Shown here in pieces: positions 37,295 to 58,037 of a stretch of 64,000 bases of DNA. Within the stretch, counting starts at the first letter, position 1. The number at the start of each line of letters is the position of its first letter. This stretch comes from Marinovum algicola (GTDB taxonomy: Bacteria; Pseudomonadota; Alphaproteobacteria; Rhodobacterales; Rhodobacteraceae): positions 310,001 to 374,000 of the forward strand of contig NZ_FNYY01000002.1 of assembly GCF_900109145.1 (NCBI RefSeq), read 5' to 3'. The translations under genes were made by a program, and so were the position numbers. The notes under the pieces are model-generated. The model was not told the origin of the DNA, searched no databases, and saw nothing but the letters and a program-made list of their open reading frames with translations.

Positions 37295-37301
37295 GACAGA
37301 C

Positions 37302-38219: not shown

Positions 38220-38222
38220 GAC

Positions 38223-39719
38223 ATGAGCTTGCTGACTAAAGACGAGTACCGGGGGATCGCGCGCGGTCTCGATCTGCCCTGCATGGCCTTTATCGACGGC
38301 GGCTTTCGCCCGGCGCTTTCGGGGCGCACCTTTGCCAGCATCAACCCGGCCACCGGCGAAGAGCTGGCGCAGGTCGCCGCCTGCGCCGCGCCCGACGTGG
38401 ACCTTGCCGTCGCCAGGGCGCGCGATGCCTTTGAGGATGGCCGCTGGTCGCGGCTGCATCCGTCGGAGCGCAAGGCGGTGCTCATCCGGCTGGCCAGGCT
38501 GATGACCCGCGAGGCCCGCGAGCTGGCGGTGATGGAAAGCCTCGACAGCGGCAAGACGATCCTCGATTGCGAGACCGTCGACCTGCCCGAAACCATCAAC
38601 TGCCTGACCTGGCACGCCGAGCTGATCGACAAGATCTATGATCAGGTCGCCCCCGCCTCGGACGATCACATCGCCATGGTGGTGCGCGAGCCGGTGGGCG
38701 TGGTCGGGCTGGTGCTGCCGTGGAACTTTCCGCTGCTGATGATGGCCTGGAAGATCGCACCGGCCCTGGCGGCCGGCTGTTCGCTGGTGGTCAAACCCGC
38801 CGAGGAAACCTCGCTCACGGCGCTGCGCCTGGCGGAACTGGCCGCCGAGGCCGGGCTGCCGCGCGGCGTGCTCAACGTGCTGCCCGGCTCCGGCCCCGAG
38901 GTCGGCGAACCGATCGGGCGGCACATGGATATCGACATGGTGTCCTTCACCGGCTCCACCGCCACCGGCAAGCGCTTTCTGTCTTATGCGGCGGACTCGA
39001 ACGCCAAGGAAGTCGTGCTCGAGATGGGCGGCAAGAACCCCGCGATCGTGCTGGAGGACGCCGAGAACCTCGATCGGGTGGCGGCGCATGTGGTCAATGG
39101 CGCCTTCTGGAACATGGGCGAGAATTGCTCGGCCAGCTCTCGGCTCATCGTGCACCGCGACGTCAAGGCGGCCCTGCTCGACCGCATCGGCCATCACTCG
39201 CGCGCCTGGAACACCGGCGACCCGCTCGACCCCGAGGTACGGCTCGGCCCGCTGGTGTCGCAGGCGCATTACGACAAGGTTCGCGGCTATCTGGACCAGG
39301 CCGGGCCGGTGCTGCTGGGCGGCACCGCGGCCGACGGCCGCGTCGCCGCGACGGTGATCGAGGTGCCGGGCAACGACGTGGCGCTGGCGCGCGAGGAAAT
39401 CTTCGGCCCGGTGCTCTCGGTGATCACCGTGGCCAGTTTCGACGAGGCGATCCAGACCGCCAATGACACCGACTATGGCCTTGCCGCCGCGCTCTTTACC
39501 GCCAATGCCAAACGCGCCATCCGCGGCGCGCGAATGCTGCGCGCGGGCACGGTGACGGTCAACAGCTTTGGCGAGGGCGACATCACCACGCCGTTTGGCG
39601 GCCACAAGCAATCGGGCTTTGGCGGGCGCGACAACGGCATCCACGCCCATGACCAATACACACAGCTCAAGACGATCTGGATCGATCTCGCCGATGATGC
39701 GGACGAGGCCATAGGGTGA
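38223..39719 (+). CDS. Aldehyde dehydrogenase (PuuC-like)
   Basis: A 498-residue NAD(P)-dependent aldehyde dehydrogenase. Blocks ELIDKIYDQVAPASDDHIAM and VVREPVGVVGLVLPWNFPLLMMAWK recall gamma-glutamyl-gamma-aminobutyraldehyde dehydrogenase (PuuC). The NAD motif is FTGSTATGKRFL, the general base Glu lies in VVLEMGGKNP, and the catalytic Cys is C302 in MGENCSASSRL. It probably oxidises an amino- or acylamino-aldehyde to the acid. It follows the DapA-like gene by 3 nt and overlaps the next start (GTGA). Confidence 0.92.
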   Translation: MSLLTKDEYRGIARGLDLPCMAFIDGGFRPALSGRTFASINPATGEELAQVAACAAPDVDLAVARARDAFEDGRWSRLHPSERKAVLIRLARLMTREARELAVMESLDSGKTILDCETVDLPETINCLTWHAELIDKIYDQVAPASDDHIAMVVREPVGVVGLVLPWNFPLLMMAWKIAPALAAGCSLVVKPAEETSLTALRLAELAAEAGLPRGVLNVLPGSGPEVGEPIGRHMDIDMVSFTGSTATGKRFLSYAADSNAKEVVLEMGGKNPAIVLEDAENLDRVAAHVVNGAFWNMGENCSASSRLIVHRDVKAALLDRIGHHSRAWNTGDPLDPEVRLGPLVSQAHYDKVRGYLDQAGPVLLGGTAADGRVAATVIEVPGNDVALAREEIFGPVLSVITVASFDEAIQTANDTDYGLAAALFTANAKRAIRGARMLRAGTVTVNSFGEGDITTPFGGHKQSGFGGRDNGIHAHDQYTQLKTIWIDLADDADEAIG

Positions 39720-41056
39720 CCGGGTACCGGGCCCGCCGGCTGCCGGTTCAGCTTGGCCCGGCGGCCTGGAACGCCCTCTTGCCCGCCGAGCCTGCGGTGC
39801 AGCCTCTCGCGCGTGACACCACGGCGGATTTTGTCCTGGTCGGCGCCGGTTTTGCCGGGCTCTCGGCGGCGCGGCGGCTGACCCAGCTTCAGCCCGGCGC
39901 GCGGATCCTGGTGCTCGAGGCCGGGCGCCTGGCCGAAGGCGCGGCAGGGCGCAACTCGGGCTTCATGATCGATCTGCCGCATGACCTGCAATCCGCCGAT
40001 TACGCCGGAGCCGGCGATGACCGGGCCTGGATCGCCCGCAACCGTCAGGCCATCGGCTTTGCCGCCGAGGCGGTCGAGGAATACGGCATCGACCGCAACT
40101 TCTTTGACCGCGCCGGCAAGATCAACGGCGCCGCCAGCGCCGCGGCCCAGGCCCACAACGACAGCTATGCCCGCCACCTCGCCGCGCTTGGCGAGCACTG
40201 CGAAAAACTCGATGCCCAGGAGATGCGGGCGTTGACCGGATCTCCGCATTACCGCTCGGGACTGTTTTCGCCGGGCACGGTGATGCTGCAACCGGCCGGC
40301 TATATCCGCGGATTGGCCCGGGGCCTGCGCGCGGCCGGCGTGATGATCCACGAGGCGAGCCCGGCCCGGGCCCTCACCCGGCAGGGCCCCGGCTGGCAGG
40401 TGACGACGCCGGGCGGAAGAGTGAGCACCTCGCGGATCATTCTCACCGTCAACGGCCATCTCGAAAGCTTCGGCGTGGCGCGCGGCCGGCTGATGCAGCT
40501 CTTTCTCTATGCCGTGATGACGCCCGAGCTGGACGCCGAGACCCTGGCCCGCCTTGGCGGCGCGCCACGCTGGGGCGTCACCCCGGCCGATCCGATGGGC
40601 ACCACGGTGCGCCGGATCGACAGCGGCCAGGGCGGCAATCGCCTGCTCCTGCGAAGCTGCGCCACGCTGCGCCCCGACATGCGGCCCCGCCGCCGCGATC
40701 TCGCCCGCGCGGCGGCGGTCATGCGGCGCAAGTTCGCCCAGCGCTTTCCGCAACTGGCCGGCCTTCGGATGGAACACGCCTGGGCCGGGCCGCTCTGCCT
40801 CAGCCTCAACGGCGTCTCGGTGACCCGCGAGATCGAGGCGGGGCTGGTCTCGGGCTGCGTGCAGAACGGTCTTGGCACCGCGCGCGGCACCCTGACCGGC
40901 ATTGCCGCCGCCGAACTGGCCGCCGGCGTGCCGAGCCCGCTCACCGATTTCTTTGCCACCGAAGCCGCGCCACGCCGCCTGCCGCCGCAACCCTTGCGCC
41001 AGCTTGGCGCCAATGCGCTGCTGCGGCTCCGGGAGTGGCGCGCGCGGGCGGAATAG
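39716..41056 (+). CDS. FAD-dependent oxidoreductase (PuuB-like, DAO family)
   Basis: A 446-residue flavoprotein starting at GTG 39716, overlapping the ALDH stop. FAD motif FVLVGAGFAGLSAARRL near residue 40, then LEAGRLAEGAAGRNSGFMIDLPHD. A C-terminal block GLVSGCVQNGLGTARGTL follows. The layout recalls gamma-glutamylputrescine oxidase (PuuB) and related amine oxidases, and an oxidase plus PuuC-like dehydrogenase is the usual pair for turning an amine into a carboxylate. The amine substrate is unknown. Confidence 0.88.
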   Translation: MTGYRARRLPVQLGPAAWNALLPAEPAVQPLARDTTADFVLVGAGFAGLSAARRLTQLQPGARILVLEAGRLAEGAAGRNSGFMIDLPHDLQSADYAGAGDDRAWIARNRQAIGFAAEAVEEYGIDRNFFDRAGKINGAASAAAQAHNDSYARHLAALGEHCEKLDAQEMRALTGSPHYRSGLFSPGTVMLQPAGYIRGLARGLRAAGVMIHEASPARALTRQGPGWQVTTPGGRVSTSRIILTVNGHLESFGVARGRLMQLFLYAVMTPELDAETLARLGGAPRWGVTPADPMGTTVRRIDSGQGGNRLLLRSCATLRPDMRPRRRDLARAAAVMRRKFAQRFPQLAGLRMEHAWAGPLCLSLNGVSVTREIEAGLVSGCVQNGLGTARGTLTGIAAAELAAGVPSPLTDFFATEAAPRRLPPQPLRQLGANALLRLREWRARAE

Positions 41057-41071
41057 GCAGGGGCGGGCGAG

Positions 41072-41093
41072 GCCCCGGCGCGGCGGCCGGGGC
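41072..41093. terminator. GC-rich hairpin between convergent genes
   Basis: GCCCCGGC and GCCGGGGC pair over a 6-nt loop in the very GC-rich 112-bp region between the convergent FAD oxidase and MttB-like genes. No U-run on either strand. Confidence 0.45.
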
Positions 41094-41168
41094 GGGAGGC
41101 AGGGGCCGCAGCCTCGCCCCACCCGCCCCGGGCCTGCCCCGGGGCCGCGCGGCCGGGGACGCCACGCC

Positions 41169-42725
41169 TCAATACTCCTGGTTCAGCGCATCCGCCGCCG
41201 GGATCTCACGCTCGCGGCGCGCGATGTAGTCCAGCAGCGCCTCGTTCCTGGCCAGGTCGAGCCGCGGCTCCTGGTACTCCGCCAGGAGCTTGCGCGCATG
41301 TTCCAGCGCCCGCGCGGTGATCTCCTTGGAGCCATCCGCCACCCATTGCTCGATCGAATTGTTGTCGAAGAGCTCCGGCATGAAATAGGCGGTCTGGAAA
41401 TTTTCCTGAGTGTGTGGATGGCCCAGGTAATGCCCGCCCGGCCCGACATCGGCCACCGCCGCCAGCGCGGCGTCGAAATCGCTCCATTTCGGCCCTTCGG
41501 CCATGCGGTAGGCCATGGCGCATTGCTCGGCATCGACAACGAATTTAGCCACCGAGCAATGCATCCCCGCCTCGTTCCAGCCAGCGGAATGCCAGATGTA
41601 ATTGGCCCCGGAATGCAGCACCGCCGAAAGCGTCGTAGCGCTTTCATAGCCGGCCTGGGCATCAAAGGTCTTGGCCCCGCCCAGCGCGCTCGACGTCCGC
41701 CAGGGCACGCCGTAGAACCGCGCCATCTGGCCGATCATGAAGTTCATCAGGCTGATTTCGGGCGTGCCCGCCATCGGCGCGCCGCTCTTCATGCTGACGG
41801 TCGAGAGGTAATGGCCATAGATCGCCGGGCAGCCCTTGCGGATCACCTGGGTATAGGCCAGCGCCGACAGCGCCTCGGCATTGAGCTGCGCCACCGTGGC
41901 CGGCACCGAGGCCGGCGTATTGGCCCCGCCCAGCACGAAGGGCGAACAGAGCACCGGCTGGTTGCGGCGGCAGAAGGCGCGCATCGCGCCCAGCATGGTC
42001 TCGTCCCAGACCAGTGGCGAATTGCCATTGCAATTGCCGGTGGTGACGGCGTGGTGTTCAAGAAACTCCGCGCCGAACAGCAGCGCGCACATCTCCATCA
42101 CGTCCTCGGCGTTCCTGGGGCTGGTGGTCATGCCCATGAACATCTTGTCGGAATGTTTCATCGAGGAATAGGTGATCCGCAGGTGGCGCTGGCTGATCGG
42201 GTGGTCGTAGGGTTCGACGATGTGATGCGCGGTGGAATGCAACGCCGGGCTCATGTGGCTGAGCTTGTGGAACATCGCCAGATCGGCCAGCGTCGGGTTG
42301 CGGCGCCGGTCGTCGAGGTCGCGCAGGTACGGCGCGCCGGTCATTGGCACGAACACCGCCTGACGCCCGCCCAGCGCGACGGTGTTCGCCGGGTTGCGGG
42401 CGTGATAGGTGATCTCGGACGGGATCGAGGCGATCAGCCCGCGCACCAGCCCCCGGTCGAGATAGACCCGCTCGCCCACTACCTTGGCCCCCGCCCGGCG
42501 CCAGTCGGCCAGCGCCACAGAATCGCGGAACACCACGCCGACGTTTTCGAGGATATCCATCGACGCGGCGTCGATCTGCGCGACCTGCGCACCCTCCATC
42601 ACCTCGCAGAACGGCAACCGGTTGGTCAGCCCGGGCAGCATGGTGACATCGCGGGTGCTGCGCAGGCTGCGGCGGGCGGCGCGGCCCCCGGCCCGCATCC
42701 GGGGCTTTGCAGTGGTGGCGGTCAT
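41169..42725 (-). CDS. Trimethylamine methyltransferase (MttB)-family protein, non-pyrrolysine type
   Basis: A 518-residue MttB-superfamily protein. Seen: DAASMDILENVGVVFRDSVALADWRRAGA, HSTAHHIVEPYDHPISQRHLR, GGANTPASVPATVAQLNAEALSALAYTQ, and GHYLGHPHTQENFQTAYFMPELFDN. The frame has no internal amber codon, so it is a non-pyrrolysine member, a group whose characterised members include corrinoid-dependent demethylases of glycine betaine and related quaternary amines. No corrinoid protein gene lies nearby. CAAAGGAG before ATG 42725 fixes the start. It is the last gene of the minus-strand amine cluster. Confidence 0.9.
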   Translation of the reverse strand: MTATTAKPRMRAGGRAARRSLRSTRDVTMLPGLTNRLPFCEVMEGAQVAQIDAASMDILENVGVVFRDSVALADWRRAGAKVVGERVYLDRGLVRGLIASIPSEITYHARNPANTVALGGRQAVFVPMTGAPYLRDLDDRRRNPTLADLAMFHKLSHMSPALHSTAHHIVEPYDHPISQRHLRITYSSMKHSDKMFMGMTTSPRNAEDVMEMCALLFGAEFLEHHAVTTGNCNGNSPLVWDETMLGAMRAFCRRNQPVLCSPFVLGGANTPASVPATVAQLNAEALSALAYTQVIRKGCPAIYGHYLSTVSMKSGAPMAGTPEISLMNFMIGQMARFYGVPWRTSSALGGAKTFDAQAGYESATTLSAVLHSGANYIWHSAGWNEAGMHCSVAKFVVDAEQCAMAYRMAEGPKWSDFDAALAAVADVGPGGHYLGHPHTQENFQTAYFMPELFDNNSIEQWVADGSKEITARALEHARKLLAEYQEPRLDLARNEALLDYIARREREIPAADALNQEY

Positions 42726-42874
42726 GGCAGATCTCCTTTGCAGGAAGACTGGCGCAGACCGGCGCATCGGATGGGGATGATTGCGAATTATCGTTGCAGG
42801 AAACGACATCGCCTGCGCGGCAGCGGCGCAGCGGATGACAGGAACGCCGCCTGCCCTACCACGCCCCGGCCTGT

Positions 42875-43852
42875 CTAGAGCCCGCCGCCCGCCGGGATCA
42901 CCACCTGCACACTGTCCTCCGCGAAATGGTCAAAGCTCTTGACCCAGCGCCGGTGCGGCCAGTGCAGTTCCAGCCGGCCCTCGCGCGGGCGATAGGCGGC
43001 GGTATAAAGCGTGCCGAAACCGGCGGTGAACGCGGTGGAATAGAGCGGCGGCCGCAGGAAGGCCGCGACAAACCGGTCATCGGTGGTCGGATGCAGGCTG
43101 AGCTGTTGCAACAGAAAGCGCTCGCGCTCGACGGTGGCGGTAAACCGCGCATGCGACGACCATTCGACCCGCTCCTGATGGTTGGTGGCCACCGCCGCAT
43201 GGCTCAGCACCGGTTTGCGGTCGGGCGCGAGATAGGCGGTCAGGAACTGCCGCCCGGCATCGAGCACGGTGACATTGTAACTCATGTGGCAGGGAATTCG
43301 CGCCAGCGCGGCGCCGGCCTCTTCGGTGCTGGTGCAGGTCTGGAGCACATAGCGCAGGATCAGCGGCACACCGAAGCCGCGCCCGGTGTTGCGCCGCCCG
43401 CCAAAGGTGAGCGAGACCGCAAGACCGGCATCGTTGATGCCATCGACCAGCCCGAACAGCCCGTCGGACATGCCGATCACCCCCCGGCCCTGCCAGCCGG
43501 TCTTGAGCACCACCGCATCGAAGGCCAGCGGCGCGTAATCGTAATTGCGCACCAAGAGCGGCGCGTCGCCCTGCCAGATCGCCTGCGAACAGGCCGAGAG
43601 ATAGGGCGGCGGGCCGTAGAAGCTCAGAAACCGCGCCGCCGCATCGCCGCCGCCGGCCAGATCGCAAAGCTCCTCCCAGAGCTGCGCGATCTCCGGCATG
43701 TGCTTGCGGATCGCCTTGCGGCATTCCAGATAGGTCGGCCGTGCCGTCAGCCCCTCGCGCGCCCACCATTGGTGATAGGCCGGCCAGTACTGCGCGAACA
43801 GCTCGGCCCATTTCGGCCCGGGCCTGTCTTCGGCGATGGCGCGGAAAAGCAT
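42875..43852 (-). CDS. C45-family autoproteolytic acyltransferase/hydrolase (Ntn-hydrolase)
   Basis: A 325-residue protein of the acyl-CoA:6-aminopenicillanate acyltransferase-like family. The candidate self-cleavage nucleophile is C88 in YLSACSQAIWQGD, giving an 87-residue leader chain; PLLVRNYDYAPL follows, matching the conserved R-N-x-D block. GMSDGLFGLVDGINDAGLAVSLTFGG and the later ATNHQERVEW block (His-rich) are also family-like. It could hydrolyse or transfer an acyl-amide. It lies 17 nt after the ATP-grasp gene, so an amide made by that ligase is a plausible substrate. GTG 43858 is an alternative start. Confidence 0.85.
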   Translation of the reverse strand: MLFRAIAEDRPGPKWAELFAQYWPAYHQWWAREGLTARPTYLECRKAIRKHMPEIAQLWEELCDLAGGGDAAARFLSFYGPPPYLSACSQAIWQGDAPLLVRNYDYAPLAFDAVVLKTGWQGRGVIGMSDGLFGLVDGINDAGLAVSLTFGGRRNTGRGFGVPLILRYVLQTCTSTEEAGAALARIPCHMSYNVTVLDAGRQFLTAYLAPDRKPVLSHAAVATNHQERVEWSSHARFTATVERERFLLQQLSLHPTTDDRFVAAFLRPPLYSTAFTAGFGTLYTAAYRPREGRLELHWPHRRWVKSFDHFAEDSVQVVIPAGGGL

Positions 43853-43869
43853 GGTCACACGCGCCGGCC

Positions 43870-45321
43870 CTACAGCATCTTGAACGCCGGATCGCCCAGC
43901 ACCTGCGCCGCCGGCAAGGGCCGCGCGCGATAGGCCGCCTTGATCCCGGCGATCCATTGTTTCGACCGCTCGGTCAGCGCGAAGCCCTTGGTCATCGAGC
44001 GGCCCCGCGTCACCAGAATGCCCAGGTCGGCGCCCTCGTACCGGTAATCGCCGGGCTTGAGGATACGCAGGAAAAACGCCTCGTCCTCGCTCTCGACCGC
44101 GCGGCGGTGATAGTCGAAACGGGCAAATTCCACCGTGCCATCGGCGCGCATCCGGTAGATGCCCGATTGCGGCGCCTCGGTGATGATGTCGACGCTGTCA
44201 TCGGTGTGCTTGATGACCATCTGCGACCAACTGTCGATCATTTCGGGATCGGACCAGCGAGCATTGAGCTCTTCGACATCGATCTCGAAGGGCTTCTTCG
44301 AGAACTCCAGCAGGTGAAACAGAAAGAGCGGCGCATCCGCATGGGCAAAGGCGGCGTGATTTGTCATCGAACTGGCGCCGGTGATGCGCGGGTTGAGCTC
44401 GCCCAGCCAGATGTCGCCGGTCTTGCGGTCGATCAGGAAGTCCAGCTCGAAATAGCCGCGATAGCCCTCTTTCCGAAGCTGTTCGCCAAACCGATAGGTC
44501 AGCTCGCGCGCCTTCTGTCGGGTCTTCGGGGGAAAGGCGGTGGCAAAGATCTCGTTGCCACACCAGCCGCCGCGATAGGGCGTAAGGTCTTTGAACCCGA
44601 CCAATTCGGTCATCAGCGGGCCGACGATGGTGCCCTCGGCCGTGGCGCAGGCCTCGATGGCCGAGCCACGACAATCGATCCGTTTCATGATCTTGATCTC
44701 GCCCTGGCCGACAATCTCATGTTCATGGCGGCGGAAATCGGCCTCCGAGGCGATGAAGAAGGTGGTATGCCCGCTGTCGCCATAGGCCGATTGCAGCACC
44801 AGATCAACGCCCAGCCCGGCCGCCGCGCAGATCTCGCGCAGCTGGGCGTAGCTTTCCACCTCGGCCAGCGTGTTGGGCACCGAGGGCACCCCCGCCTTGT
44901 TGCCGATGCGCACGGTCTCGATCTTGTTGTCCATCGCGCTGCGCAGCTTGGCCTTGGGGAACCAAAGCTCGCCGCCCAGCTCCCTGACCAGCCGCTCGGT
45001 GGTCTCGTCGAACATCAGAAAGGCAAACTTCGGCTTGCCGCCGCGCGCCTTGACGTAATCCACCACCTCCTTGTGTTGCAGCAGATAGTTGTTGATGTCC
45101 TCGATCGACTGGAACTCGTCATGCGGCATGTCGGAGGGCACCAGAACGTTCGGGTGCCGCCCGTCAAAGCAATCCATGTAGCAGATGTACTTGAAATTCC
45201 GCACCCATTCGTCGAGCCCGAGCAGGTTGAAATTCGTCGCCGAGACGAAATAGACCGGATCGGAATTGGTGTGAAAGTGGCGCCGGATCTCGGAGATGTT
45301 GCGCAGGGTCTTTCTGGCCAT
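43870..45321 (-). CDS. ATP-grasp domain ligase
   Basis: A 483-residue ATP-grasp enzyme, resembling the biotin-carboxylase-type fold but without biotin-carrier partners. Seen: NKIETVRIGNKAGVPSVPNTL at the start of the ATP-grasp domain, LVLQSAYGDSGHTTFFI (the small-domain glycine loop), IKIMKRIDCRGSAIEACATAEGTIVGPL, and the metal-binding motif YFELDFLIDRKTGDIWLGELNPRITGASS (Glu and Asn). ATP-grasp enzymes join a carboxylate to an amine through an acyl-phosphate. It sits between an amino-acid decarboxylase and an Ntn amidohydrolase, so the decarboxylation product may be the amine acceptor. GAGGAGCGATCG precedes the ATG. Confidence 0.88.
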   Translation of the reverse strand: MARKTLRNISEIRRHFHTNSDPVYFVSATNFNLLGLDEWVRNFKYICYMDCFDGRHPNVLVPSDMPHDEFQSIEDINNYLLQHKEVVDYVKARGGKPKFAFLMFDETTERLVRELGGELWFPKAKLRSAMDNKIETVRIGNKAGVPSVPNTLAEVESYAQLREICAAAGLGVDLVLQSAYGDSGHTTFFIASEADFRRHEHEIVGQGEIKIMKRIDCRGSAIEACATAEGTIVGPLMTELVGFKDLTPYRGGWCGNEIFATAFPPKTRQKARELTYRFGEQLRKEGYRGYFELDFLIDRKTGDIWLGELNPRITGASSMTNHAAFAHADAPLFLFHLLEFSKKPFEIDVEELNARWSDPEMIDSWSQMVIKHTDDSVDIITEAPQSGIYRMRADGTVEFARFDYHRRAVESEDEAFFLRILKPGDYRYEGADLGILVTRGRSMTKGFALTERSKQWIAGIKAAYRARPLPAAQVLGDPAFKML

Positions 45322-45340
45322 CGATCGCTCCTCTTCGTGC

Positions 45341-48094: not shown

Positions 48095-48161
48095 TCCGTT
48101 CTCCCTGTTGGCGCCTTTTGCGGCGCTGCGTGTTGTTCTGCCATCCCCTCGGAGGCCCCGG

Positions 48162-49130
48162 TCAGCCGGTGCCGGACACCCTCTTGAAGATCGGCAGGTT
48201 GTCCTCTGGTTTGTAGTCCTGCGGCTCGCGCCCCAGCGCGCTGCGCGGATCGGCCGTGTTCACCCCGGCCTGTGACCCCTGTTGCGGAATGGCCAGCGGC
48301 CCCAGCGTCGTCAGATAGGCGTCGGTGCCGCTGCTGCGGTCATAGACCGAAAAATCCGCCTCGCGGTCGCGGAAGCTCTTGAGCACCTGGCCCAGTCCCT
48401 TCAGCCCGGTCTCGCGCTGGCGGCGCACCATGTCGAGATCGATCTCGATCGGGAACATGTCCTCTTGCCCGGCAGACTGGTGCAGCACCGTGGCGGTCGG
48501 ATCGACCACCAGCGACTTGCCGACACCGCCGGCACCCAGGCCGTTGACGTCGATCACGTAGCACTGGAACTGCGCCGCGGTGGCCCGCGCGATGGCGATC
48601 TCGGCGTCGCGGTCGGTGGTGCCGGTCAGCACGGGGTGCAACAGCACTTCGACCCCCTGGCTGGTAAGTTGCCGCGTGGTTTCCGGGAACCAGATGTCGT
48701 AGCAGATCGACAGGCCGAAGCGGCCCACCCCCGGCACGTCGAAGACGCAGAAATCGGTCCCCGACGAGATATCGGCCTCATAGGGCTTGAACGGGAACAT
48801 CTTGCGATAGGTGCGGATGATCTCGCCATCGGGGTTGATCACCACCGAAGTGTTGTAAATTCGCCCGTCCTCGGCCTTTTCGAACATCGAGCCCGGGATC
48901 AGCCAGATCTTGTGGCGGCGCGCCTCGTCCTGAAACATCCGAAGCGTGTCATTCGGGAACGGCAAGGCGTATTGATGCAGCGGGCCAAAAGCCGCCAGCT
49001 CCGAGAACACCACCATCTGGGTCCAGGGAAACCGCGCCATCAGAACGTCGAGCCGCTCTTTCATGCCCTCGACGTTGGAATGCAGCGCCGCGACATGCAT
49101 CTGTACGCCGGCGATTGCGAAAGGGGTCAT
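48162..49130 (-). CDS. Carbon-nitrogen hydrolase (nitrilase superfamily amidase)
   Basis: A 322-residue nitrilase-superfamily enzyme. The Glu-Lys-Cys triad is visible: E44 in VVFSELAAFG, K110 in TYRKMFPFKP, and C143 in GLSICYDIWFPE. The family includes N-carbamoylputrescine amidase and aliphatic amidases. It heads the minus operon upstream of the decarboxylase (67-nt gap), so hydrolysis of an N-carbamoyl or N-acyl amine is likely. The C-terminal tail after residue 270 is long and poorly conserved-looking. ATG 49130 follows CAAGGAGAAAGAAAGCAG. Confidence 0.9.
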   Translation of the reverse strand: MTPFAIAGVQMHVAALHSNVEGMKERLDVLMARFPWTQMVVFSELAAFGPLHQYALPFPNDTLRMFQDEARRHKIWLIPGSMFEKAEDGRIYNTSVVINPDGEIIRTYRKMFPFKPYEADISSGTDFCVFDVPGVGRFGLSICYDIWFPETTRQLTSQGVEVLLHPVLTGTTDRDAEIAIARATAAQFQCYVIDVNGLGAGGVGKSLVVDPTATVLHQSAGQEDMFPIEIDLDMVRRQRETGLKGLGQVLKSFRDREADFSVYDRSSGTDAYLTTLGPLAIPQQGSQAGVNTADPRSALGREPQDYKPEDNLPIFKRVSGTG

Positions 49131-49539: not shown

Positions 49540-50109
49540 TCAGAACGTCGGCGGCGTGCAGGCGCTGATGATGACGCAATCCTGATCGCCGATGTTGCGG
49601 AACTTGTGCGGCAGCCGGCTGTCGAACAGATAACCGTCGCCCCGGTTGAGTACGCGCACCTGATCGCCGACCGTGATCTCGATGATCCCGGCAATCACCA
49701 CCCCGGCCTCTTCGGCCTGATGGCTAAGCATCTTCTCGCCGGTGTCGGCGCCGGGGGGATAGGTTTCGTGCAGCACCTGAAGACTGTGCGACGAGGCATT
49801 GCCCAACTGGCGCAGCGAGACCCGCGAGGCGCCCTTGCCCAAACCCATGTCCTGCGGCGACAGCTCGATGAATTCGTCGGCGGTATAGAAGTACTTGGGC
49901 GTACCGGCGTCCTCGACCTCGGAAAAGAATTCCGACAGCGGGGTCTGCACCGCGTCGAGCAGGCTTTTCAGCGACGAGACCGAGGGGCTGGTCTTGTTCT
50001 GCTCGATCATCGAGACCGCGCCATTGGTCATGCCGGCGCGCGCCGCCAGTTCCCGCTGCGACATGCCGCGCGCCTCCCGCGCCGCCCTGAGTCTTCCGCC
50101 GATATCCAA
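49540..50109 (-). CDS. XRE-family regulator with C-terminal cupin domain (PuuR-like)
   Basis: A 189-residue protein: HTH (LRAAREARGMSQRELAARAGMTNGAVSMIEQNKTSPSVSSLKSLLDAV) followed by a cupin domain (YPPGADTGEKMLSHQAEEAGVVIAGIIEITVGDQVRVLNRGDGYLFDSRLPHKFRN). This is the architecture of PuuR, the repressor of putrescine utilisation in E. coli. The start is TTG 50109, with AAGG 7 nt upstream; no in-frame ATG fits. It diverges from gabT and probably represses it and perhaps the adjacent minus-strand cluster. Confidence 0.9.
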   Translation of the reverse strand: MDIGGRLRAAREARGMSQRELAARAGMTNGAVSMIEQNKTSPSVSSLKSLLDAVQTPLSEFFSEVEDAGTPKYFYTADEFIELSPQDMGLGKGASRVSLRQLGNASSHSLQVLHETYPPGADTGEKMLSHQAEEAGVVIAGIIEITVGDQVRVLNRGDGYLFDSRLPHKFRNIGDQDCVIISACTPPTF

Positions 50110-50275: not shown

Positions 50276-50316
50276 TTGACAAAAATATTGATCACAACGT
50301 ACTAATTTATTGATCA
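50276..50316 (+). promoter_or_regulatory. gabT promoter with two direct repeats TATTGATCA
   Basis: TTGACA (50276-50281) is a good -35 box; TACTAA (50300-50305, 18-nt spacer) is a possible -10. Two copies of TATTGATCA start 22 bp apart (50286-50294 and 50308-50316), covering the spacer and the start region. The spacing of two helical turns is that expected for tandem repressor dimers. The repeats resemble the asymmetric AT-rich sites known for PuuR-type repressors. Confidence 0.6.
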
Positions 50317-50337
50317 TTCACCGGGAGGGTCGGACCC

Positions 50338-51780
50338 ATGACTGCCAGCACCAAACCGCGCGCCAGCCGGGCCGCGAACAAGGACAAGAAAACCGCCGCA
50401 CGCAAGCCCGCGGCCAAACCCGCAGCCAAATCTGCCGCCAAGCCGGTCAGCAAGCCCGTTGTTGCGCAGACCGGCAGCAACGCCGCGCTTCTGGCCCGTC
50501 GCGAGGCCGCGGTGCCGCGCGGTGTCGCCTCTGCCGCGCCGGTCTTTGCCGCCCGTGCCGAGAATGCCGAGCTCTGGGATGTCGAGGGCAAGCGCTACAT
50601 CGATTTCGCCGGCGGCATTGCCGTGCTGAACACCGGGCACCGTCACCCCAAGGTCATCGAGGCCGCCAAGGCGCAGGAAGACCTCTATACCCACACGTCG
50701 TTCCAGGTCGTGCCCTATGAGCCTTACGTCGCGCTGGCCGAAAAGCTGAACGAACTGGCGCCGGGTGATTTCGCCAAGAAGACGCTGCTGGTCACCACCG
50801 GCGCCGAGGCGGTCGAGAACGCCGTCAAGATCGCCCGCGCCCATACCGGCCGCCCCGGCGTCATTGCCTTCAACGGCTCTTACCACGGCCGCACCCTGCT
50901 GACGCTGGGCATGACCGGCAAGATCAGCCCCTACAAGAAAGACGTCGGCCCCTTCCCCTCCGACATCTTCCGCGCGCCCTTCCCCGACGCGCGTCAGGGC
51001 GTGACCGTCGAGGACAGCCTCAAGGCGCTCGAGATGCTGTTTCTCACCGATGCCCAGCCCGACCGCGTGGCGGCGATCATCCTCGAACCGGTGCTCGGCG
51101 AAGGCGGCTATCATCCAGTCCCGGCCGAGATGTTCCAGGCCCTGCGCGCGATCTGCGACCGGCATGGCATCCTGCTGATCTCTGACGAGATCCAGGCCGG
51201 TTTCGGCCGCACCGGCACCTGGTTTGCGATCGAGCATTCCGGCGTCGCGCCCGATCTGATCACCTGTGCCAAATCCATGGCCGGCGGCTATCCCGTGGCC
51301 GGTGTGATCGGCCGGGCCGAGGTGATGGATGCGATGGCCCCCGGCGGCCTTGGCGGCACCTATGGCGGCAACCCGGTCGCCTGCGCCGCGGCGCTGGCGG
51401 CGATCGAGGCGATCGAAAGCGAGGGATTGCTCGCCCGCTCGACCGCCCTGGGCGAAATGTTCAAGGCCCGCTTTGCCGAGATCGGCGCCCGGGTCGCGCC
51501 CTACCGGATGTGGGACATTCGCGGCCTTGGCGCGATGATCGCGGTGGAATTCGTCACCGATTTCGACACCGCCGCGCCCGACGCCGCGCTGACCAAGGCG
51601 GTGATCGCCAAGGCGCTGGACAAGGGTCTGATCCTGCTGGCCTGCGGCATGCATGGCAACGCCCTGCGCATCATGGTGCCGCTGACCGCATCGGATGCGA
51701 TCCTCGAGGAAGCCATGGTGATCTTCGAAGGCGCGCTGGCCGAGGCCATCGCCGAACAGCACGCGCTGGCGGCGGAATAA
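50338..51780 (+). CDS. gabT: 4-Aminobutyrate aminotransferase (class III, GabT-like)
   Basis: A 480-residue class III aminotransferase converting GABA plus 2-oxoglutarate to succinate semialdehyde plus glutamate. Core blocks: GKRYIDFAGGIAVLNTGHRHP, TTGAEAVENAVKIARAHTGRP, GSYHGRTLLTLGMTG, ILEPVLGEGGYHPVP, and the PLP lysine K312 in ITCAKSMAGGYP. An unusual N-terminal tail of about 45 residues is rich in Lys and Ala, with AKPAAK-type repeats. ATG 50338 follows GGGAGGG, and there is no later in-frame ATG before the core, so the tail seems real. Confidence 0.92.
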   Translation: MTASTKPRASRAANKDKKTAARKPAAKPAAKSAAKPVSKPVVAQTGSNAALLARREAAVPRGVASAAPVFAARAENAELWDVEGKRYIDFAGGIAVLNTGHRHPKVIEAAKAQEDLYTHTSFQVVPYEPYVALAEKLNELAPGDFAKKTLLVTTGAEAVENAVKIARAHTGRPGVIAFNGSYHGRTLLTLGMTGKISPYKKDVGPFPSDIFRAPFPDARQGVTVEDSLKALEMLFLTDAQPDRVAAIILEPVLGEGGYHPVPAEMFQALRAICDRHGILLISDEIQAGFGRTGTWFAIEHSGVAPDLITCAKSMAGGYPVAGVIGRAEVMDAMAPGGLGGTYGGNPVACAAALAAIEAIESEGLLARSTALGEMFKARFAEIGARVAPYRMWDIRGLGAMIAVEFVTDFDTAAPDAALTKAVIAKALDKGLILLACGMHGNALRIMVPLTASDAILEEAMVIFEGALAEAIAEQHALAAE

Positions 51781-51789
51781 GCCAACTCC

Positions 51790-51819
51790 GGCTGGCGGCG
51801 GATTTTCCCGTCGCCAGCC
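51790..51819 (+). terminator. Hairpin after gabT
   Basis: GGCTGGCG and CGCCAGCC form an 8-bp stem, extendable by a G-C pair and G-T pair, with an A/T-rich loop. TTGCTTGCC follows. It may terminate partly before the second aminotransferase gene. Confidence 0.5.
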
Positions 51820-51908
51820 TTGCTTGCCCCTGATTTCAGGTTTACCCCGGGGAGCGGGTCCGCCCCCTGCGCCGGACCGACCCGGTTGCCACATCAGGAG
51901 CTCCGCCG

Positions 51909-53228
51909 ATGAACCATGTCTTTCCCCGCCACAGCAAAGCCAAGCTTCCCACCGCCGTTGGCGGCGAGGGGTGTTATCTGATCGACGCAGACGGAAAGCG
52001 CTATCTCGATGGCTCGGGCGGCGCAGCGGTCTCCTGCCTGGGTCATGGCGATACCGAAGTGGTCGAGGCGGTCAAGGCCCAGCTCGACAGGCTGGCCTTT
52101 GCCCACACCGGATTTTTCACCTCGGAACCGGCCGAGGAGCTGGCCGATCTGCTGATCGCAAACGCGCCCGAAGGCATCGACCGGGTCTATCTGGTCTCTG
52201 GCGGCTCCGAGGCGACGGAAGCCGCGATCAAGCTGGCACGGCAATATTGGGTCGAAAAGGGCGAGCCGCAGCGCGGCAAGCTGATCGCCCGCAAGCAGAG
52301 CTATCACGGCAATACCATCGGCGCGCTGAGCGCCGGCGGCAATGAATGGCGCCGGGCGCAATTCGGGCCGCTGCTGCTCGACGTGAGCCATATCGACCCC
52401 TGCTACGAATACCGGCTGCGCCACGAGGGCGAGAGCCCCGAGGAGTACGGCCGCCGCGCCGCCGATGCGCTGGAAGCGGAAATCCAGCGTCTCGGGCCGG
52501 AGAATGTCATGGGTTTCATGGCCGAACCGGTGGTGGGCGCCACCGCCGGCGCACTGGCCCCGGCGCCGGGCTATTTCCAGCGCATCCGCGAAATCTGCGA
52601 CTGCCATGGCGTGCTGCTGATCCTTGACGAGGTGATGTGCGGCATGGGCCGGACCGGCACGCTCTTTGCCTGCGAACAGGATGGCGTGCGCCCCGATATC
52701 CTCTGCGTCGCCAAGGGGCTTGGCGCGGGCTATCAGCCGATCGGCGCCATGCTCTGCACCGCCGAGATCTATGACACCATCGCCCAGGGCTCGGGCTTCT
52801 TTCAGCATGGTCATACCTACATGGGCCACCCGGCGGCGGCGGCGGCCGGCAAGGCGGTGGTCTCGGCGATCCTCGACCGCGGGCTGCTGCCCCGGGTGCA
52901 GGAGATGGGCGAGAAACTGCATGCCAAGCTCACCGACCGTTTCGGCCAGCACCCGCATGTCGGCGACATCCGCGGCCGCGGGCTGTTCCGCGCCATCGAG
53001 CTGGTCGAGGACCGCGACAGCAAGGAACCCTTCGATCCGGCGCGCGGGCTGGCGGCCAGGATCAAGAAGGCGGCCTTTGCCGAGGGGCTGATCTGTTACC
53101 CGATGTCCGGCACGCTCGACGGCCGGCGCGGCGACCATGTGCTGCTGGCGCCGCCCTTCATCATCGAAGAGGCCCAGCTCGATGAATTGGTCGATAAACT
53201 GGACCGCGCCATCGAGGCTTCTATCTGA
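51909..53228 (+). CDS. Class III aminotransferase
   Basis: A 439-residue PLP-dependent omega-aminotransferase. Seen: GKRYLDGSGGAAVSCLGHG, LVSGGSEATEAAIKLARQYW, KQSYHGNTIGALSAGG, FMAEPVVGATAGALAP, DEVMCGMGRTGTLFACE, and the PLP lysine K269 in CVAKGLGAGYQPIGA. This type uses diamines, beta-alanine, taurine or similar omega-amines. It is distinct from the preceding GabT, suggesting a first-step transaminase on a diamine. AGGAG precedes the ATG. Confidence 0.9.
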   Translation: MNHVFPRHSKAKLPTAVGGEGCYLIDADGKRYLDGSGGAAVSCLGHGDTEVVEAVKAQLDRLAFAHTGFFTSEPAEELADLLIANAPEGIDRVYLVSGGSEATEAAIKLARQYWVEKGEPQRGKLIARKQSYHGNTIGALSAGGNEWRRAQFGPLLLDVSHIDPCYEYRLRHEGESPEEYGRRAADALEAEIQRLGPENVMGFMAEPVVGATAGALAPAPGYFQRIREICDCHGVLLILDEVMCGMGRTGTLFACEQDGVRPDILCVAKGLGAGYQPIGAMLCTAEIYDTIAQGSGFFQHGHTYMGHPAAAAAGKAVVSAILDRGLLPRVQEMGEKLHAKLTDRFGQHPHVGDIRGRGLFRAIELVEDRDSKEPFDPARGLAARIKKAAFAEGLICYPMSGTLDGRRGDHVLLAPPFIIEEAQLDELVDKLDRAIEASI

Positions 53229-53256
53229 TGTCTCATTGCCGCAAAGGACACCGCCC

Positions 53257-53820
53257 ATGACCGCCGCCTATCCCCTGCCCCCGATCTCCGACGCCGACTG
53301 GCCGGAAGAGATCGCCGACATGAGCGGCGGCTTCGCGGGCAAACTCAACGTCTATCGCACCATGGCGCATGACCCGGCGCTGCTGCGGGCCTGGACCGAT
53401 CTTCGCCAGCACGTCGTACTCGAAAGCGCGTTGGGGCTGGAGCTTGTCGAAGTGGTGATCCTGCGCACCGGTGTGCGGCTGAACTCGCGGTACGAATGGC
53501 AACAGCACATCTCGCGCGCCCGCAAGGTGGGCTTCGACGATGCCCGCATCGCCACGATCCGCGGCGCCACCGATGCCATGGCGCCGGCCGACGCGCTGCT
53601 GGCGCGGGCGGTGGACGAGCTGTTCGACAATAAGCAGCTCTCGCCGATGACCGCCAAGGCGCTGGCCGAGACCTACGGCAAGGAAGGGATGATCGACCTG
53701 ATGGCGACGGTCGGCTTCTATTCCACGCTGGGCTTTATCCTGAAAACCTGTGGCACGCCGCTCGACGATGACATCGCCGGAGAACTGGCGGCGCGCCCCT
53801 TTCCCGAAACCGAAAACTGA
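53257..53820 (+). CDS. Carboxymuconolactone decarboxylase (CMD)-family protein
   Basis: A 187-residue CMD/AhpD-fold protein. It has AGKLNVYRTMAHDPALLRAWTDLRQHV, LELVEVVILRTGVRLNSRYEWQQHISRARKVGFDD, and GFYSTLGFILKTCG. There is no CxxC redox pair in the catalytic helix, so it is not a peroxiredoxin partner of AhpD type. Function unknown, though CMD proteins accompany many degradation operons. It lies between the aminotransferase and gabD. Confidence 0.85.
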   Translation: MTAAYPLPPISDADWPEEIADMSGGFAGKLNVYRTMAHDPALLRAWTDLRQHVVLESALGLELVEVVILRTGVRLNSRYEWQQHISRARKVGFDDARIATIRGATDAMAPADALLARAVDELFDNKQLSPMTAKALAETYGKEGMIDLMATVGFYSTLGFILKTCGTPLDDDIAGELAARPFPETEN

Positions 53821-53837
53821 GACTAGGAGTTTCTCCC

Positions 53838-55316
53838 ATGCTCGACCAACAGACCGATCTCGCTTCTCTTCTGAACGATCCCGAATTGATCGCGACCAAG
53901 GCCTATCTGGCCGGTGAATGGCGCGACGCCAAGGATGGCGCGACCTTTGACGTGACCAACCCGGCGCGCGGCGACGTCATTGCCAAGGTGGCCGACCTCT
54001 CGCGCGAGGAATGCGCCGAGGCGATCGATGCCGCCTACAAGGCCCAGAAGGACTGGGCGCAATGGACCGGCAAGGAACGCGCCGGCGTGCTGCGCAAATG
54101 GTTCGACCTGATGGTCGAACATGCCGAGGATCTGGGCAGGATCCTGACCGCCGAACAGGGCAAGCCGCAGGCCGAGGCCAAGGGCGAGGTGATGTATGGC
54201 GCCTCGTTCATCGAATGGTTCGCCGAAGAGGCCAAGCGCGCCTATGGCGAAACAATCCCCGGCCACCAGCGCGACAAGCGGATCACCGTGATCACCCAGC
54301 CGATCGGCGTTGCCGCCTCGATCACGCCCTGGAACTTCCCCAATGCGATGATCACCCGCAAGGCCGGCCCGGCGCTGGCCTCGGGCTGCGCCTTTGTCGC
54401 CCGCCCCGCCGCCGAGACGCCGCTCTCGGCGCTGGCGCTGGGTGTGCTGGCCGAGCGCGCCGGCATTCCGCATGGCGTCTTTTCGGTCATTCCCTCGTCG
54501 CGCTCCTCCGAGATCGGCAAGGAATTCTGCGAGAACCCCAAGGTCCGCAAGCTGACCTTCACCGGCTCGACCGAAGTGGGCCGCATCCTGCTTCGTCAGG
54601 CCGCCGATCAGGTGATGAAATGCTCGATGGAGCTCGGCGGCAATGCGCCCTTCATTGTGTTCGACGACGCCGATCTGGATGCCGCTGTCGAAGGCGCAAT
54701 GATCTCGAAATACCGCAACAACGGCCAGACTTGCGTCTGCGCCAACCGCATCTACGTGCAATCGGGCGTCTATGACGAATTCGCTGAGAAGCTGGCCAAG
54801 GCGGTGGCCGGCATGAAGGTCGGCGACGGTCTCTCGGGCGAGCCGACAGTGGGCCCGCTGATCAATCAGGAAGCGGTCGAAAAGGTCGAAGAGCACATCG
54901 CCGACGCCAAATCCAAGGGCGGCAAGGTGATCCAGGGCGGCAAGCGCCACGAGCTGGGCGGCACCTTCTTCGAGCCGACAGTGATCACTGGCGCCACCCG
55001 CGAGATGGTGTTCTCGCAGGACGAGACCTTTGGCCCGATGGCTCCGCTCTACAAGTTCGACACCGTCGACGAGGTGATCGAGCTGGCCAATGACACGATC
55101 TTCGGCCTGGCCTCGTATTTCTATGCCAAGGACCTGAGCCGCGTGACCAAGGTGCAGGAAGCGCTGGAATACGGCATGGTCGGCGTGAACACCGGGCTGA
55201 TCTCGACCGAGGTGGCGCCCTTTGGCGGGGTCAAGCAATCCGGCCTCGGCCGCGAAGGCAGCCGCCACGGGATGGATGAATTCATGGAAATGAAGTACAT
55301 CTGCACCTCTGTATAA
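53838..55316 (+). CDS. gabD: NAD-dependent succinate-semialdehyde dehydrogenase (GabD-like)
   Basis: A 492-residue aldehyde dehydrogenase. Blocks VITQPIGVAASITPWNFPNAMITRKAGPALASGCAFVARPA, FTGSTEVGRILL, the base region SMELGGNAPFIVFDDADLD, and the catalytic Cys C299 in NNGQTCVCANRIYVQ (the paired Cys-x-Cys is typical of GabD). It completes GABA degradation to succinate. AGGAG precedes the ATG; it follows the CMD gene by 17 nt. Confidence 0.93.
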   Translation: MLDQQTDLASLLNDPELIATKAYLAGEWRDAKDGATFDVTNPARGDVIAKVADLSREECAEAIDAAYKAQKDWAQWTGKERAGVLRKWFDLMVEHAEDLGRILTAEQGKPQAEAKGEVMYGASFIEWFAEEAKRAYGETIPGHQRDKRITVITQPIGVAASITPWNFPNAMITRKAGPALASGCAFVARPAAETPLSALALGVLAERAGIPHGVFSVIPSSRSSEIGKEFCENPKVRKLTFTGSTEVGRILLRQAADQVMKCSMELGGNAPFIVFDDADLDAAVEGAMISKYRNNGQTCVCANRIYVQSGVYDEFAEKLAKAVAGMKVGDGLSGEPTVGPLINQEAVEKVEEHIADAKSKGGKVIQGGKRHELGGTFFEPTVITGATREMVFSQDETFGPMAPLYKFDTVDEVIELANDTIFGLASYFYAKDLSRVTKVQEALEYGMVGVNTGLISTEVAPFGGVKQSGLGREGSRHGMDEFMEMKYICTSV

Positions 55317-58001: not shown

Positions 58002-58037
58002 ACAGGGTCTGCCGGACATTTACCAGGGAGAGTGATC

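What the first reader, a model, noticed from the sequence alone, without database searches (positions are those of the whole stretch)
38223..55316. Candidate new acylated-amine (polyamine to GABA) pathway with ATP-grasp and Ntn enzymes in place of PuuA and PuuD
The region holds PuuC-like dehydrogenase, PuuB-like FAD oxidase, PuuR-like XRE-cupin repressor, GabT, GabD, an amino-acid decarboxylase and two amide-hydrolysing enzymes (nitrilase-superfamily and C45), but no glutamine-synthetase-like PuuA or PuuD. Instead an ATP-grasp ligase sits next to the decarboxylase. Hypothesis: the decarboxylase makes a diamine, the ATP-grasp enzyme acylates it, oxidase and dehydrogenase convert the free end to an acid, and a hydrolase releases GABA or a homologue for GabT and GabD. 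This split and its enzyme set are not a standard pathway I recognise.
Basis: inference. Interest (0 to 1): 0.75.

Follow-up and report, generated by a model that had tools for sequence, protein, structure and literature searches.

The report
Conserved four-enzyme operon feeding GABA
Four enzymes in this window (an amidase, an unusual amino-acid decarboxylase, an ATP-using ligase and a second amide-cutting enzyme) are one conserved bacterial operon of unassigned function that probably turns a glutamate-like compound into GABA, and it gives genomic context to a decarboxylase family whose activity is unknown.

Summary
The genes are real but form two adjacent systems. (2) 42875-49130: nitrilase, Orn/Lys/Arg-fold decarboxylase, ATP-grasp and C45 genes form a conserved operon: in the 80 nearest ATP-grasp loci the nitrilase is present in 75, the decarboxylase in 78, C45 in 79; ATP-grasp and decarboxylase share 9 of 299 genomes against 0.39 expected. 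GabT and an XRE-cupin gene are frequent neighbours. A diamine route is not supported: the decarboxylase is of the Rv2531c family, activity unclarified; the Glu of lysine/arginine decarboxylases is Asn in 98 of 98; a related clade lies near AspT-type antiporters in 6 of 6 loci fetched; 31 of 80 loci encode a TAXI transporter with VcGluP's glutamate-binding residues. Best reading, inferred (0.4): a glutamate-type compound becomes GABA through an ATP-grasp-made amide. Linkage to arginine genes in Shinella is the main counter-evidence. A Puu-like set lies elsewhere in the genome. My searches found no description.

The parts
48162..49130 (-). Nitrilase-superfamily amidase (322 aa from the ATG at 49130; searches used 48162-49127, i.e. 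without the first Met); first gene of the four-gene operon
   Evidence: PF00795; Glu43, Lys109, Cys142 (counted after the Met) invariant in 10 homologues (catalytic role recalled); 75 of 80 related loci
45341..48094 (-). 917-aa PLP decarboxylase of the Orn/Lys/Arg fold, Rv2531c family; Lys578 = PLP lysine (by motif); Asn738 in place of the Glu of Lys/Arg decarboxylases; Arg742
   Evidence: PF01276; 830 bits to PDB 9n0n; residue counts; 78 of 80 loci
43870..45321 (-). ATP-grasp enzyme (483 aa), annotated 'biotin carboxylase' family NF005096/PRK06524
   Evidence: 752.3 bits, cut-off 684; fold match to biotin carboxylase, PurK and PurD; the motif PRIQVEH of pyruvate carboxylase reads PRITGAS here
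42875..43852 (-). C45-family Ntn enzyme; start placed at 43852 from homologue alignment (the ORF caller starts at 43957)
   Evidence: NF040521 above cut-off; Cys of the CSQA motif invariant (nucleophile role recalled); model of 42875-43897 pLDDT 87, best PDB match isopenicillin N acyltransferase 2x1c; 79 of 80 loci
49540..50109 (-). XRE-cupin regulator, PuuR-like (below PuuR cut-off); frequent neighbour
   Evidence: 27 of 80 loci
50338..51780 (+). GabT, 4-aminobutyrate transaminase; frequent neighbour
   Evidence: TIGR00700 above cut-off; best hit in 21 of 80 loci, 15 of these at 80% identity or more
51909..53228 (+). Second class III aminotransferase (PRK07483 family)
   Evidence: 766.2 bits, cut-off 485; 11 of 80 loci; homologue upstream of the transporter genes in L153 and upstream of the lone ATP-grasp gene in L158; also in L199, an oxidase-unit locus without cassette
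53251..53820 (+). Small protein between the aminotransferase and GabD; carboxymuconolactone-decarboxylase-like by eye only
   Evidence: ORF; no NCBIfam hit; 2 of 80 loci
53838..55316 (+). GabD, succinate-semialdehyde dehydrogenase
   Evidence: TIGR01780 above cut-off; 4 of 80 loci
41169..42809 (-). MttB-superfamily methyltransferase; belongs to the neighbouring unit, not to the cassette
   Evidence: PF06253; 78-87% identical homologue beside the oxidase unit in L197-L200 and L202, 34% in L201; only 1 of 80 cassette loci, at 40%
36521..41056 (+).
   Evidence: recurs without the cassette in L197-L202
35520..36521 (-). GbdR-like AraC regulator of the neighbouring unit
   Evidence: 319.8 bits, cut-off 480; 63-68% homologue beside the unit in L197-L200; 6 of 80 cassette loci have a 28-41% homologue

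Best explanation
The thing to explain is a conserved four-gene operon, nitrilase - decarboxylase - ATP-grasp - C45, joined here to GABA genes. Shown: the operon, its conservation, and the families of its enzymes. Inferred: L-glutamate, or a close relative, is the starting compound. The ATP-grasp enzyme spends ATP to join it through its side-chain carboxyl (or through a side-chain amine) to a partner, giving an amide. The Rv2531c-type decarboxylase, whose pocket no longer has the acidic residue shared by Lys and Arg decarboxylases, removes the alpha-carboxyl of that neutral or acidic substrate. The C45 enzyme and the nitrilase then cut the remaining amide bonds, releasing GABA (or an analogous omega-amino acid) and the partner. 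GabT or a related class III aminotransferase and GabD take GABA to succinate. The FAD oxidase and ALDH next door play no part.
For: Operon: same-strand genes with small gaps; 80/79/78/75 of 80 related loci for ATP-grasp/C45/decarboxylase/nitrilase; all four in 6 of the 8 other genomes with an ATP-grasp orthologue in a 299-genome phylum draw, in three gene arrangements, and three of four within 20 kb in the other 2; genome-level overlap ATP-grasp/decarboxylase 9 against 0.39 expected; correlated distances among the four proteins (shared ancestry contributes). Substrate type: the Glu of the VEKTG stretch in solved lysine and arginine decarboxylases aligns to Asn738, Asn in 98 of 98; Arg742 in 97 of 98. 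Transporters: 31 of 80 loci encode a TAXI binding protein plus a DctM/DUF3394 membrane protein (families by clustering, one representative of each scanned); the representative scores 389 bits to PDB 8S4J = VcGluP, the glutamate-binding TAXI of PMC11574862 (passages read), and the residues matching its V44, Y45, S75 and Q93 are kept in 31 of 31. A Cupriavidus cassette is followed by a sodium:dicarboxylate symporter-family gene. A related decarboxylase clade, without the other three genes, lies near AspT-family antiporter genes in 6 of 6 loci fetched (adjacent in 5, 3.2 kb away in L196), once with aspD. GABA end: GabT in 21 of 80, XRE-cupin in 27 of 80; GabT and GabD homologues (57 and 56%) beside the cassette in G007.
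Against: No enzyme of the four has a substrate tested here. The roles of the LdcI Glu and of Arg742 rest on alignment and recall. Shinella and Roseateles XES5 keep ATP-grasp, C45 and a nitrilase in an arginine cluster with AruI, an agmatinase-family gene, racemase and D-amino-acid dehydrogenase; the decarboxylase was not found in the Shinella record and is elsewhere on the XES5 plasmid. This genome's own second copy (C22) has no decarboxylase. So the decarboxylase is not obligatory. In G086 the four genes lie inside an ectoine operon. Oligopeptide-type ABC transporters sit downstream in others. 33 of 80 loci show neither TAXI nor GabT. The 80 loci are close relatives, so their TAXI and GabT links may reflect few events, and this TAXI type is common without the cassette (122 plasmid records, against 32 with the ATP-grasp gene). 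That the ATP-grasp makes an amide is assumed.
Confidence: 0.4

Rival explanations
1. One reading: decarboxylase makes a diamine, ATP-grasp acylates it, the FAD oxidase and ALDH next door oxidise the free end, a hydrolase releases GABA.
For: All genes lie within 17 kb; GabT and GabD reach their curated cut-offs.
Against: Oxidase and ALDH are absent from 80 and 79 of 80 cassette loci and form their own unit with DapA/GntR/MttB in 6 of 6 loci fetched; in G083 the two units are over 1.2 Mb apart; the decarboxylase lacks the Glu shared by solved Lys/Arg decarboxylases.
Confidence: 0.06
2. Arginine-family route: the module handles agmatine, 4-guanidinobutyrate or another guanidino/ornithine compound on the way to GABA; the ATP-grasp/C45 pair adds and removes a protecting acyl group.
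For: AruI, agmatinase-family, ALDH, D-amino-acid dehydrogenase and racemase genes in one row with ATP-grasp and C45 in Shinella and XES5; arginase-family gene two genes upstream of the whole cassette in G491; precedent for decarboxylating an acylated ornithine: FigC on N-citrylornithine (PMC7857480, abstract read).
Against: Asn738 in place of Glu; AspT and glutamate-type TAXI transporters; no arginase-family or arginine-specific gene among the 18 of 45 listed flanking families that I identified.
Confidence: 0.2
3. The decarboxylase simply makes GABA (or alanine/beta-alanine) from a free acidic amino acid, and the other three enzymes supply that amino acid from an imported amide or peptide-like compound or recycle its nitrogen.
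For: AspT-linked related clade without the other genes; glutamate-type TAXI; two amide hydrolases, and oligopeptide-type ABC transporters in some loci.
Against: Does not explain why a ligase that costs ATP is kept even where the decarboxylase is missing.
Confidence: 0.2
4. A biosynthetic module: the four enzymes build and trim a small amide (osmolyte, signal or storage compound), and the GABA genes are neighbours by chance.
For: Location inside an ectoine operon in G086 and next to nifHDK on a Rhizobium plasmid; GabT absent from 59 of 80 loci.
Against: Importers, aminotransferases and two hydrolases in the operon or its neighbourhood.
Confidence: 0.14

Closest known systems
Puu (gamma-glutamylputrescine) pathway, PuuA/PuuB/PuuC/PuuD
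   Same: Proposed logic: ATP-dependent amide formation, later hydrolysis, GABA handed to GabT and GabD; PuuR-like XRE-cupin regulator nearby
   Different: Ligase is ATP-grasp, not glutamine-synthetase-like; hydrolases are C45 and nitrilase, not a class I amidotransferase; the operon contains a decarboxylase and no oxidase or ALDH
Rv2531c-family decarboxylase (PDB 9n0n, 9n0o, 9n0p)
   Same: Full-length homology, 830 bits over residues 20-910
   Different: Arg742 is Ile in Rv2531c; its activity is stated as not clarified in PMC12910592 (passages read); I did not examine its gene neighbourhood
N-citrylornithine pathway (FigA/FigC, rhizoferrin)
   Same: A ligase first acylates an amino acid and a PLP decarboxylase then acts on the conjugate (PMC7857480, abstract)
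   Different: FigC has the alanine-racemase fold and FigA is an NIS synthetase; siderophore biosynthesis, not GABA
Aspartate/alanine (AspT-AspD) and glutamate/GABA exchange systems (recalled)
   Same: A related clade of the decarboxylase is paired with AspT-family antiporters
   Different: No AspT was seen with the cassette; the cassette has three further enzymes
Isopenicillin N acyltransferase / C45 family
   Same: Fold and conserved Cys; NF040521 above cut-off
   Different: About 17% identity to the solved enzyme; substrate unknown

Membership tests
Puu pathway | Glutamine-synthetase-like PuuA in the operon | tested here: not met
   None of the 5 PF00120 matches in the genome lies in the window
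Puu pathway | PuuB/PuuC-type oxidase and dehydrogenase as conserved partners | tested here: not met
   0 and 1 of 80 cassette loci; separate unit
Puu pathway | Acts on putrescine | not testable with these tools
   Needs assay or growth test
Lys/Arg/Orn decarboxylases (OKR, AdiA, LdcI, SpeC types) | OKR domain with PLP lysine | tested here: met
   PF01276 260.7 bits; STHK Lys578 in 97 of 97 sequences with a letter there
Lys/Arg/Orn decarboxylases (OKR, AdiA, LdcI, SpeC types) | Glu of the VEKTG stretch of solved Lys and Arg decarboxylases (LdcI 526) | tested here: not met
   Asn in 98 of 98; alignment; the role of that Glu is recalled, not found in the papers opened
Lys/Arg/Orn decarboxylases (OKR, AdiA, LdcI, SpeC types) | NCBIfam cut-off for any named decarboxylase | tested here: not met
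   Best 210.1 bits against 968
Rv2531c-type decarboxylases | Full-length similarity to PDB 9n0n | tested here: met
   E 1.9e-248
Biotin carboxylase | BC-like ATP-grasp fold | tested here: inconclusive
   Foldseek to 2v58 E 4.6e-11, but from a model of pLDDT 68.9, and PurK and PurD score about as well
Biotin carboxylase | Glu of the PRIQVEH motif (bicarbonate activation; recalled) | tested here: not met
   PRITGAS; Ala, Ile or Val at that place in 13 of 13 aligned homologues
Biotin carboxylase | Biotin carrier and carboxyltransferase partners | tested here: not met
   None annotated around the ATP-grasp gene in the annotated plasmid loci; gene lists there are incomplete
N-carbamoylputrescine amidase (AguB) | TIGR03381 cut-off | tested here: not met
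   72.2 against 410.25 bits
C45 autoproteolytic acyltransferase/hydrolase | NF040521 cut-off and conserved Cys | tested here: met
   180.5 against 85 bits; Cys123 invariant in 11
C45 autoproteolytic acyltransferase/hydrolase | Self-cleavage and acyl transfer or hydrolysis | not testable with these tools
   Needs protein
GABA shunt (GabT/GabD) | TIGR00700 and TIGR01780 cut-offs | tested here: met
   550.5/506.65 and 701.9/646.35 bits

The most novel reading that the evidence does not exclude
An undescribed amide-carrier route from glutamate to GABA: the ATP-grasp enzyme couples glutamate (or a diamino acid) to a small amine or acid, an OKR-fold decarboxylase acts on the conjugate rather than on a free basic amino acid, and an Ntn enzyme with a nitrilase releases GABA and recycles the carrier. 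It would assign chemistry to the Rv2531c decarboxylase family and to the 'biotin carboxylase' family NF005096.
Probability: 0.25. Interest if true: 0.8.

Novelty: new variant of a known kind. Interest (0 to 1): 0.6.

Why it matters
I found no assigned substrate for any of the four enzymes, and one bears the name biotin carboxylase in public annotation, probably wrongly. The context ties four orphan families together and gives a short list of substrates, so the activity of the Rv2531c-type decarboxylases becomes directly testable in harmless marine bacteria. If the amide-carrier reading holds, it is a new chemical logic for making GABA.

Tried and rejected
Rejected: one 17-kb pathway (the oxidase/ALDH unit is separate). 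Rejected: 'biotin carboxylase' as function (motif and partners). Rejected: a plain Arg/Lys/Orn decarboxylase by family cut-off and pocket residue.

Led nowhere: literature searches for the gene set gave no description; a search for the LdcI Glu526 role and two papers from it (passages) held no statement on that residue, so its role is recalled; PMC9992855 was searched for citrulline and ATP-grasp without result; PMC7268258 (passages) has arginine catabolism of Sinorhizobium but names none of the four genes in the passages shown; the Rv2531c structure paper is not held; a search for hydroxyproline-betaine/MttB papers was only listed. The ATP-grasp model is mediocre (pLDDT 68.9) and its fold search gave only the superfamily. 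The distance-correlation test does not separate co-function from shared ancestry.

Dropped or incomplete rows: one sequence (L168) was read in the wrong frame and is not used. In one search my ORF caller hid the ALDH and DapA genes of L200, the oxidase of L202 and the decarboxylase of L196 behind antisense ORFs (the latter two are placed). In L159 (G575) only a partial ATP-grasp match is known and no cassette gene was called; L154 and L160 are cut by contig ends; G663 and G159 were not fetched. One search counts a gene only if the alignment covers 60% of the window protein.
Full report
What is in the window. Read leftwards, nitrilase (48162-49130), a 917-aa decarboxylase (45341-48094), an ATP-grasp protein (43870-45321) and a C45 enzyme (42875-43852) follow each other with gaps of 67, 19 and 17 bases; MttB (41169-42809) comes next on the same strand. 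Upstream are an XRE-cupin regulator (49540-50109) and, divergent from it, GabT, a second class III aminotransferase, a small protein and GabD. On the other side, reading towards the cassette, lie GntR, DapA-like, ALDH and FAD oxidase (36521-41056) with a divergent GbdR-like regulator (35520-36521).

Two units. Homologues of the FAD oxidase (E 1e-60 or better) occur in 32 of 120 genomes of the family, this one included. I fetched six of these loci: in all six the oxidase, placed, lies with homologues of several of the GntR, DapA, ALDH, MttB and GbdR-like genes (all five in L197-L199; in L200-L202 some are missing or hidden by my ORF caller, and the MttB of L201 is only 34% identical), and none of the six holds an ATP-grasp, C45, decarboxylase or nitrilase homologue. 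L199 does hold a homologue of the second aminotransferase of the window. L200 has an enolase-superfamily gene by Pfam, L202 one by eye, and four of the six have short-chain dehydrogenase genes. This recalls hydroxyproline-betaine catabolism (DapA-type deaminase, DAO dehydrogenase, semialdehyde dehydrogenase; recalled, not tested). In G083 both units are present on one contig of 4.19 Mb, at 2.92 Mb and at 12 kb.

The four-gene operon. Of these 80, C45 is present in 79, decarboxylase in 78, nitrilase in 75, XRE-cupin in 27, GabT in 21 (15 at 80% identity or more), the second aminotransferase in 11, a GbdR-like gene in 6 (28-41%), GabD in 4, GntR and the small protein in 2 each, AdhC, ALDH and MttB in 1 each, oxidase and DapA in 0. 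Because these 80 are close relatives, wider samples matter more. In a draw of 299 genomes of the phylum, 9 have an ATP-grasp orthologue (E < 1e-100), this genome with two copies. Of the 8 others, 6 have all four genes together, in three arrangements, and 2 have three of them within 20 kb. In the same draw the decarboxylase family occurs in 13 genomes, including all 9; expected overlap 0.39, p 1.5e-14 (genomes are not independent). Further loci from class and order draws mostly repeat the set: L150, L153, L155, L156, L157 with four genes, L151 and L152 with three, L158 with the ATP-grasp gene and an aminotransferase only, L154 and L160 cut by contig ends, L159 unresolved. Pairwise distances of the four proteins correlate across 13 distant loci, r 0.73-0.92, each above the maximum of 2000 permutations; shared species history contributes to this.

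Variation. Shinella and Roseateles XES5 plasmids have ATP-grasp and C45 inside an arginine cluster (AruI, agmatinase family, ALDH, D-amino-acid dehydrogenase, racemase, RidA) with a nitrilase a few genes away; the decarboxylase was not found in the Shinella record and is elsewhere on the XES5 plasmid. In G086 the four genes lie between doeB/Lrp and two genes at the doeC/doeD place of an ectoine operon; DoeA, DoeB and EhuR score above their cut-offs. In Rhizobium leguminosarum Vaf10 the decarboxylase, ATP-grasp and C45 genes lie next to nifHDKEN and are followed by an ABC transporter and an amidase. Roseobacter ponti has XRE-cupin, GabT, a glutamate-synthase-family gene, the four genes, then an oligopeptide-type ABC transporter. 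In G491 an arginase-family gene lies two genes upstream of the cassette. This genome's second copy on C22 has nitrilase, C45 and ATP-grasp, a LysR gene and TctC/TctA-like transporter genes (by eye), no decarboxylase.

The decarboxylase. Its closest solved relatives are 9n0n/9n0o, 'probable amino acid decarboxylase' (830 bits); PMC12910592 (passages read) lists 9N0O for Rv2531c and says the activity was not clarified. In the alignment the Glu of the VEKTG stretch of solved lysine and arginine decarboxylases, which I recall as a residue meeting the substrate's positive end, is Asn738; it is Asn in 98 of 98 sequences from ATP-grasp loci, with Arg742 in 97 of 98 and the PLP lysine in all 97 that have a letter there. 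Asn and Arg are also kept in a separate clade of 7 decarboxylases from genomes or records without the ATP-grasp neighbour (support 1.0; midpoint rooting, so its place relative to the cassette lineages is open). In 6 of 6 fetched loci of that clade an AspT-family gene is near: L194 and L196 by Pfam, L195 by its likeness to L194, L204-L206 by annotation; adjacent in five, 3.2 kb away in L196; in Rhizobium T1473 with aspD and an HdeA-type chaperone. Two further decarboxylases, which group with the cassette lineages but have no ATP-grasp gene beside them (L203, L207), have no AspT.

Transporters. 31 of 80 loci have a TAXI binding protein and a DctM membrane protein with a DUF3394 domain (by clustering; one representative of each scanned), and 21 of these 31 also have a universal stress protein gene. 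The TAXI representative matches PDB 8S4J at 389 bits; PMC11574862 (passages read) identifies 8S4J as VcGluP of Vibrio cholerae, with a Kd of 0.065 uM for L-glutamate, Y45 and Q93 as key residues and a DUF3394 'claw' in its membrane partner. The residues aligned to V44, Y45, S75 and Q93 are identical in 31 of 31. Against giving this much weight: relatives of this TAXI protein occur in 122 plasmid records, the ATP-grasp gene in 32, so the transporter is not special to the cassette. The Cupriavidus oxalaticus cassette is followed by a sodium:dicarboxylate symporter-family gene and a family 3 binding protein. 47 of 80 loci have TAXI, GabT or both; 33 have neither.

The other enzymes. The ATP-grasp protein matches the NCBIfam model 'biotin carboxylase' PRK06524, but the motif Glu of true biotin carboxylases is Ala, Ile or Val in 13 of 13 and no biotin carrier is annotated near it in the plasmid loci; the model folds like biotin carboxylase, PurK and PurD, so a carboxylate-amine or similar ligase is the plain reading (inference). 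The C45 model is good (pLDDT 87) and closest to isopenicillin N acyltransferase, then NAAA, ceramidase and bile salt hydrolases. The nitrilase is near Nit2, aliphatic amidase and formamidase, with no family cut-off reached.

Reading. I commit to an amide-based route from a glutamate-type compound to GABA, with the decarboxylase acting on an acidic or amide-bearing substrate, at 0.4. The order of ligation, decarboxylation and hydrolysis is inferred; acylation before decarboxylation has a precedent in N-citrylornithine decarboxylation (PMC7857480, abstract). The arginine-family reading (0.2) keeps real support from Shinella, XES5 and G491. A Puu-like set (GS-like, amidotransferase-like, GS-like, DAO oxidase) lies on C27 of this genome, so polyamine use would not need the cassette.

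Known or new. Searches of the open library found no paper on this gene set; subscription journals are mostly outside it. The enzymes are members of known superfamilies; I did not find the combination, or a function for it, described.

Noticed in passing
window 35520-42809; L197-L202: A conserved unit GbdR-like/GntR, DapA-like, ALDH, DAO oxidase, MttB, often with SDR genes and sometimes an enolase-superfamily gene: looks like hydroxyproline-betaine or related betaine catabolism (recalled); untested.
   Followed up: partly
G000 contig C22, L036 7178-11869: Second copy of nitrilase, C45 and ATP-grasp without decarboxylase, with a VOC-like gene, LysR and TctC/TctA-like transporter genes (the last three by eye).
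   Followed up: partly
L043 2242-16420: Cassette inside an ectoine-degradation operon (doeA, doeB, Lrp, EhuR around it).
   Followed up: partly
L049, L050, L051, L052 (Rhizobium leguminosarum plasmids): Cassette genes near nifHDKEN (L050) or nifA/nifB (L049), or near a Nif11-like RiPP cluster (L051, L052), mostly with an ABC transporter downstream: possible link to symbiosis.
   Followed up: no
Sinorhizobium plasmid hits H25-H32: Only fragments (39-46% of the query) of the ATP-grasp gene: probably decayed copies.
   Followed up: no
L097: Contig labelled Oceanobacillus carries a cassette 81% identical (ATP-grasp) to this alphaproteobacterial one: perhaps a mislabelled or contaminated assembly.
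   Followed up: no
L204-L206: Rv2531c-type decarboxylases paired with one or two aspT genes, once with aspD and an HdeA-type chaperone: perhaps an acid-resistance system with an unassigned decarboxylase.
   Followed up: partly
NCBIfam NF005096 (PRK06524): The public name 'biotin carboxylase' for this ATP-grasp family looks wrong.
   Followed up: partly
window 55801-57462 and 58032-59150: ImuB-like DNA polymerase (by eye) and a class III alcohol dehydrogenase (TIGR02818 above cut-off) downstream; not part of the module.
   Followed up: no
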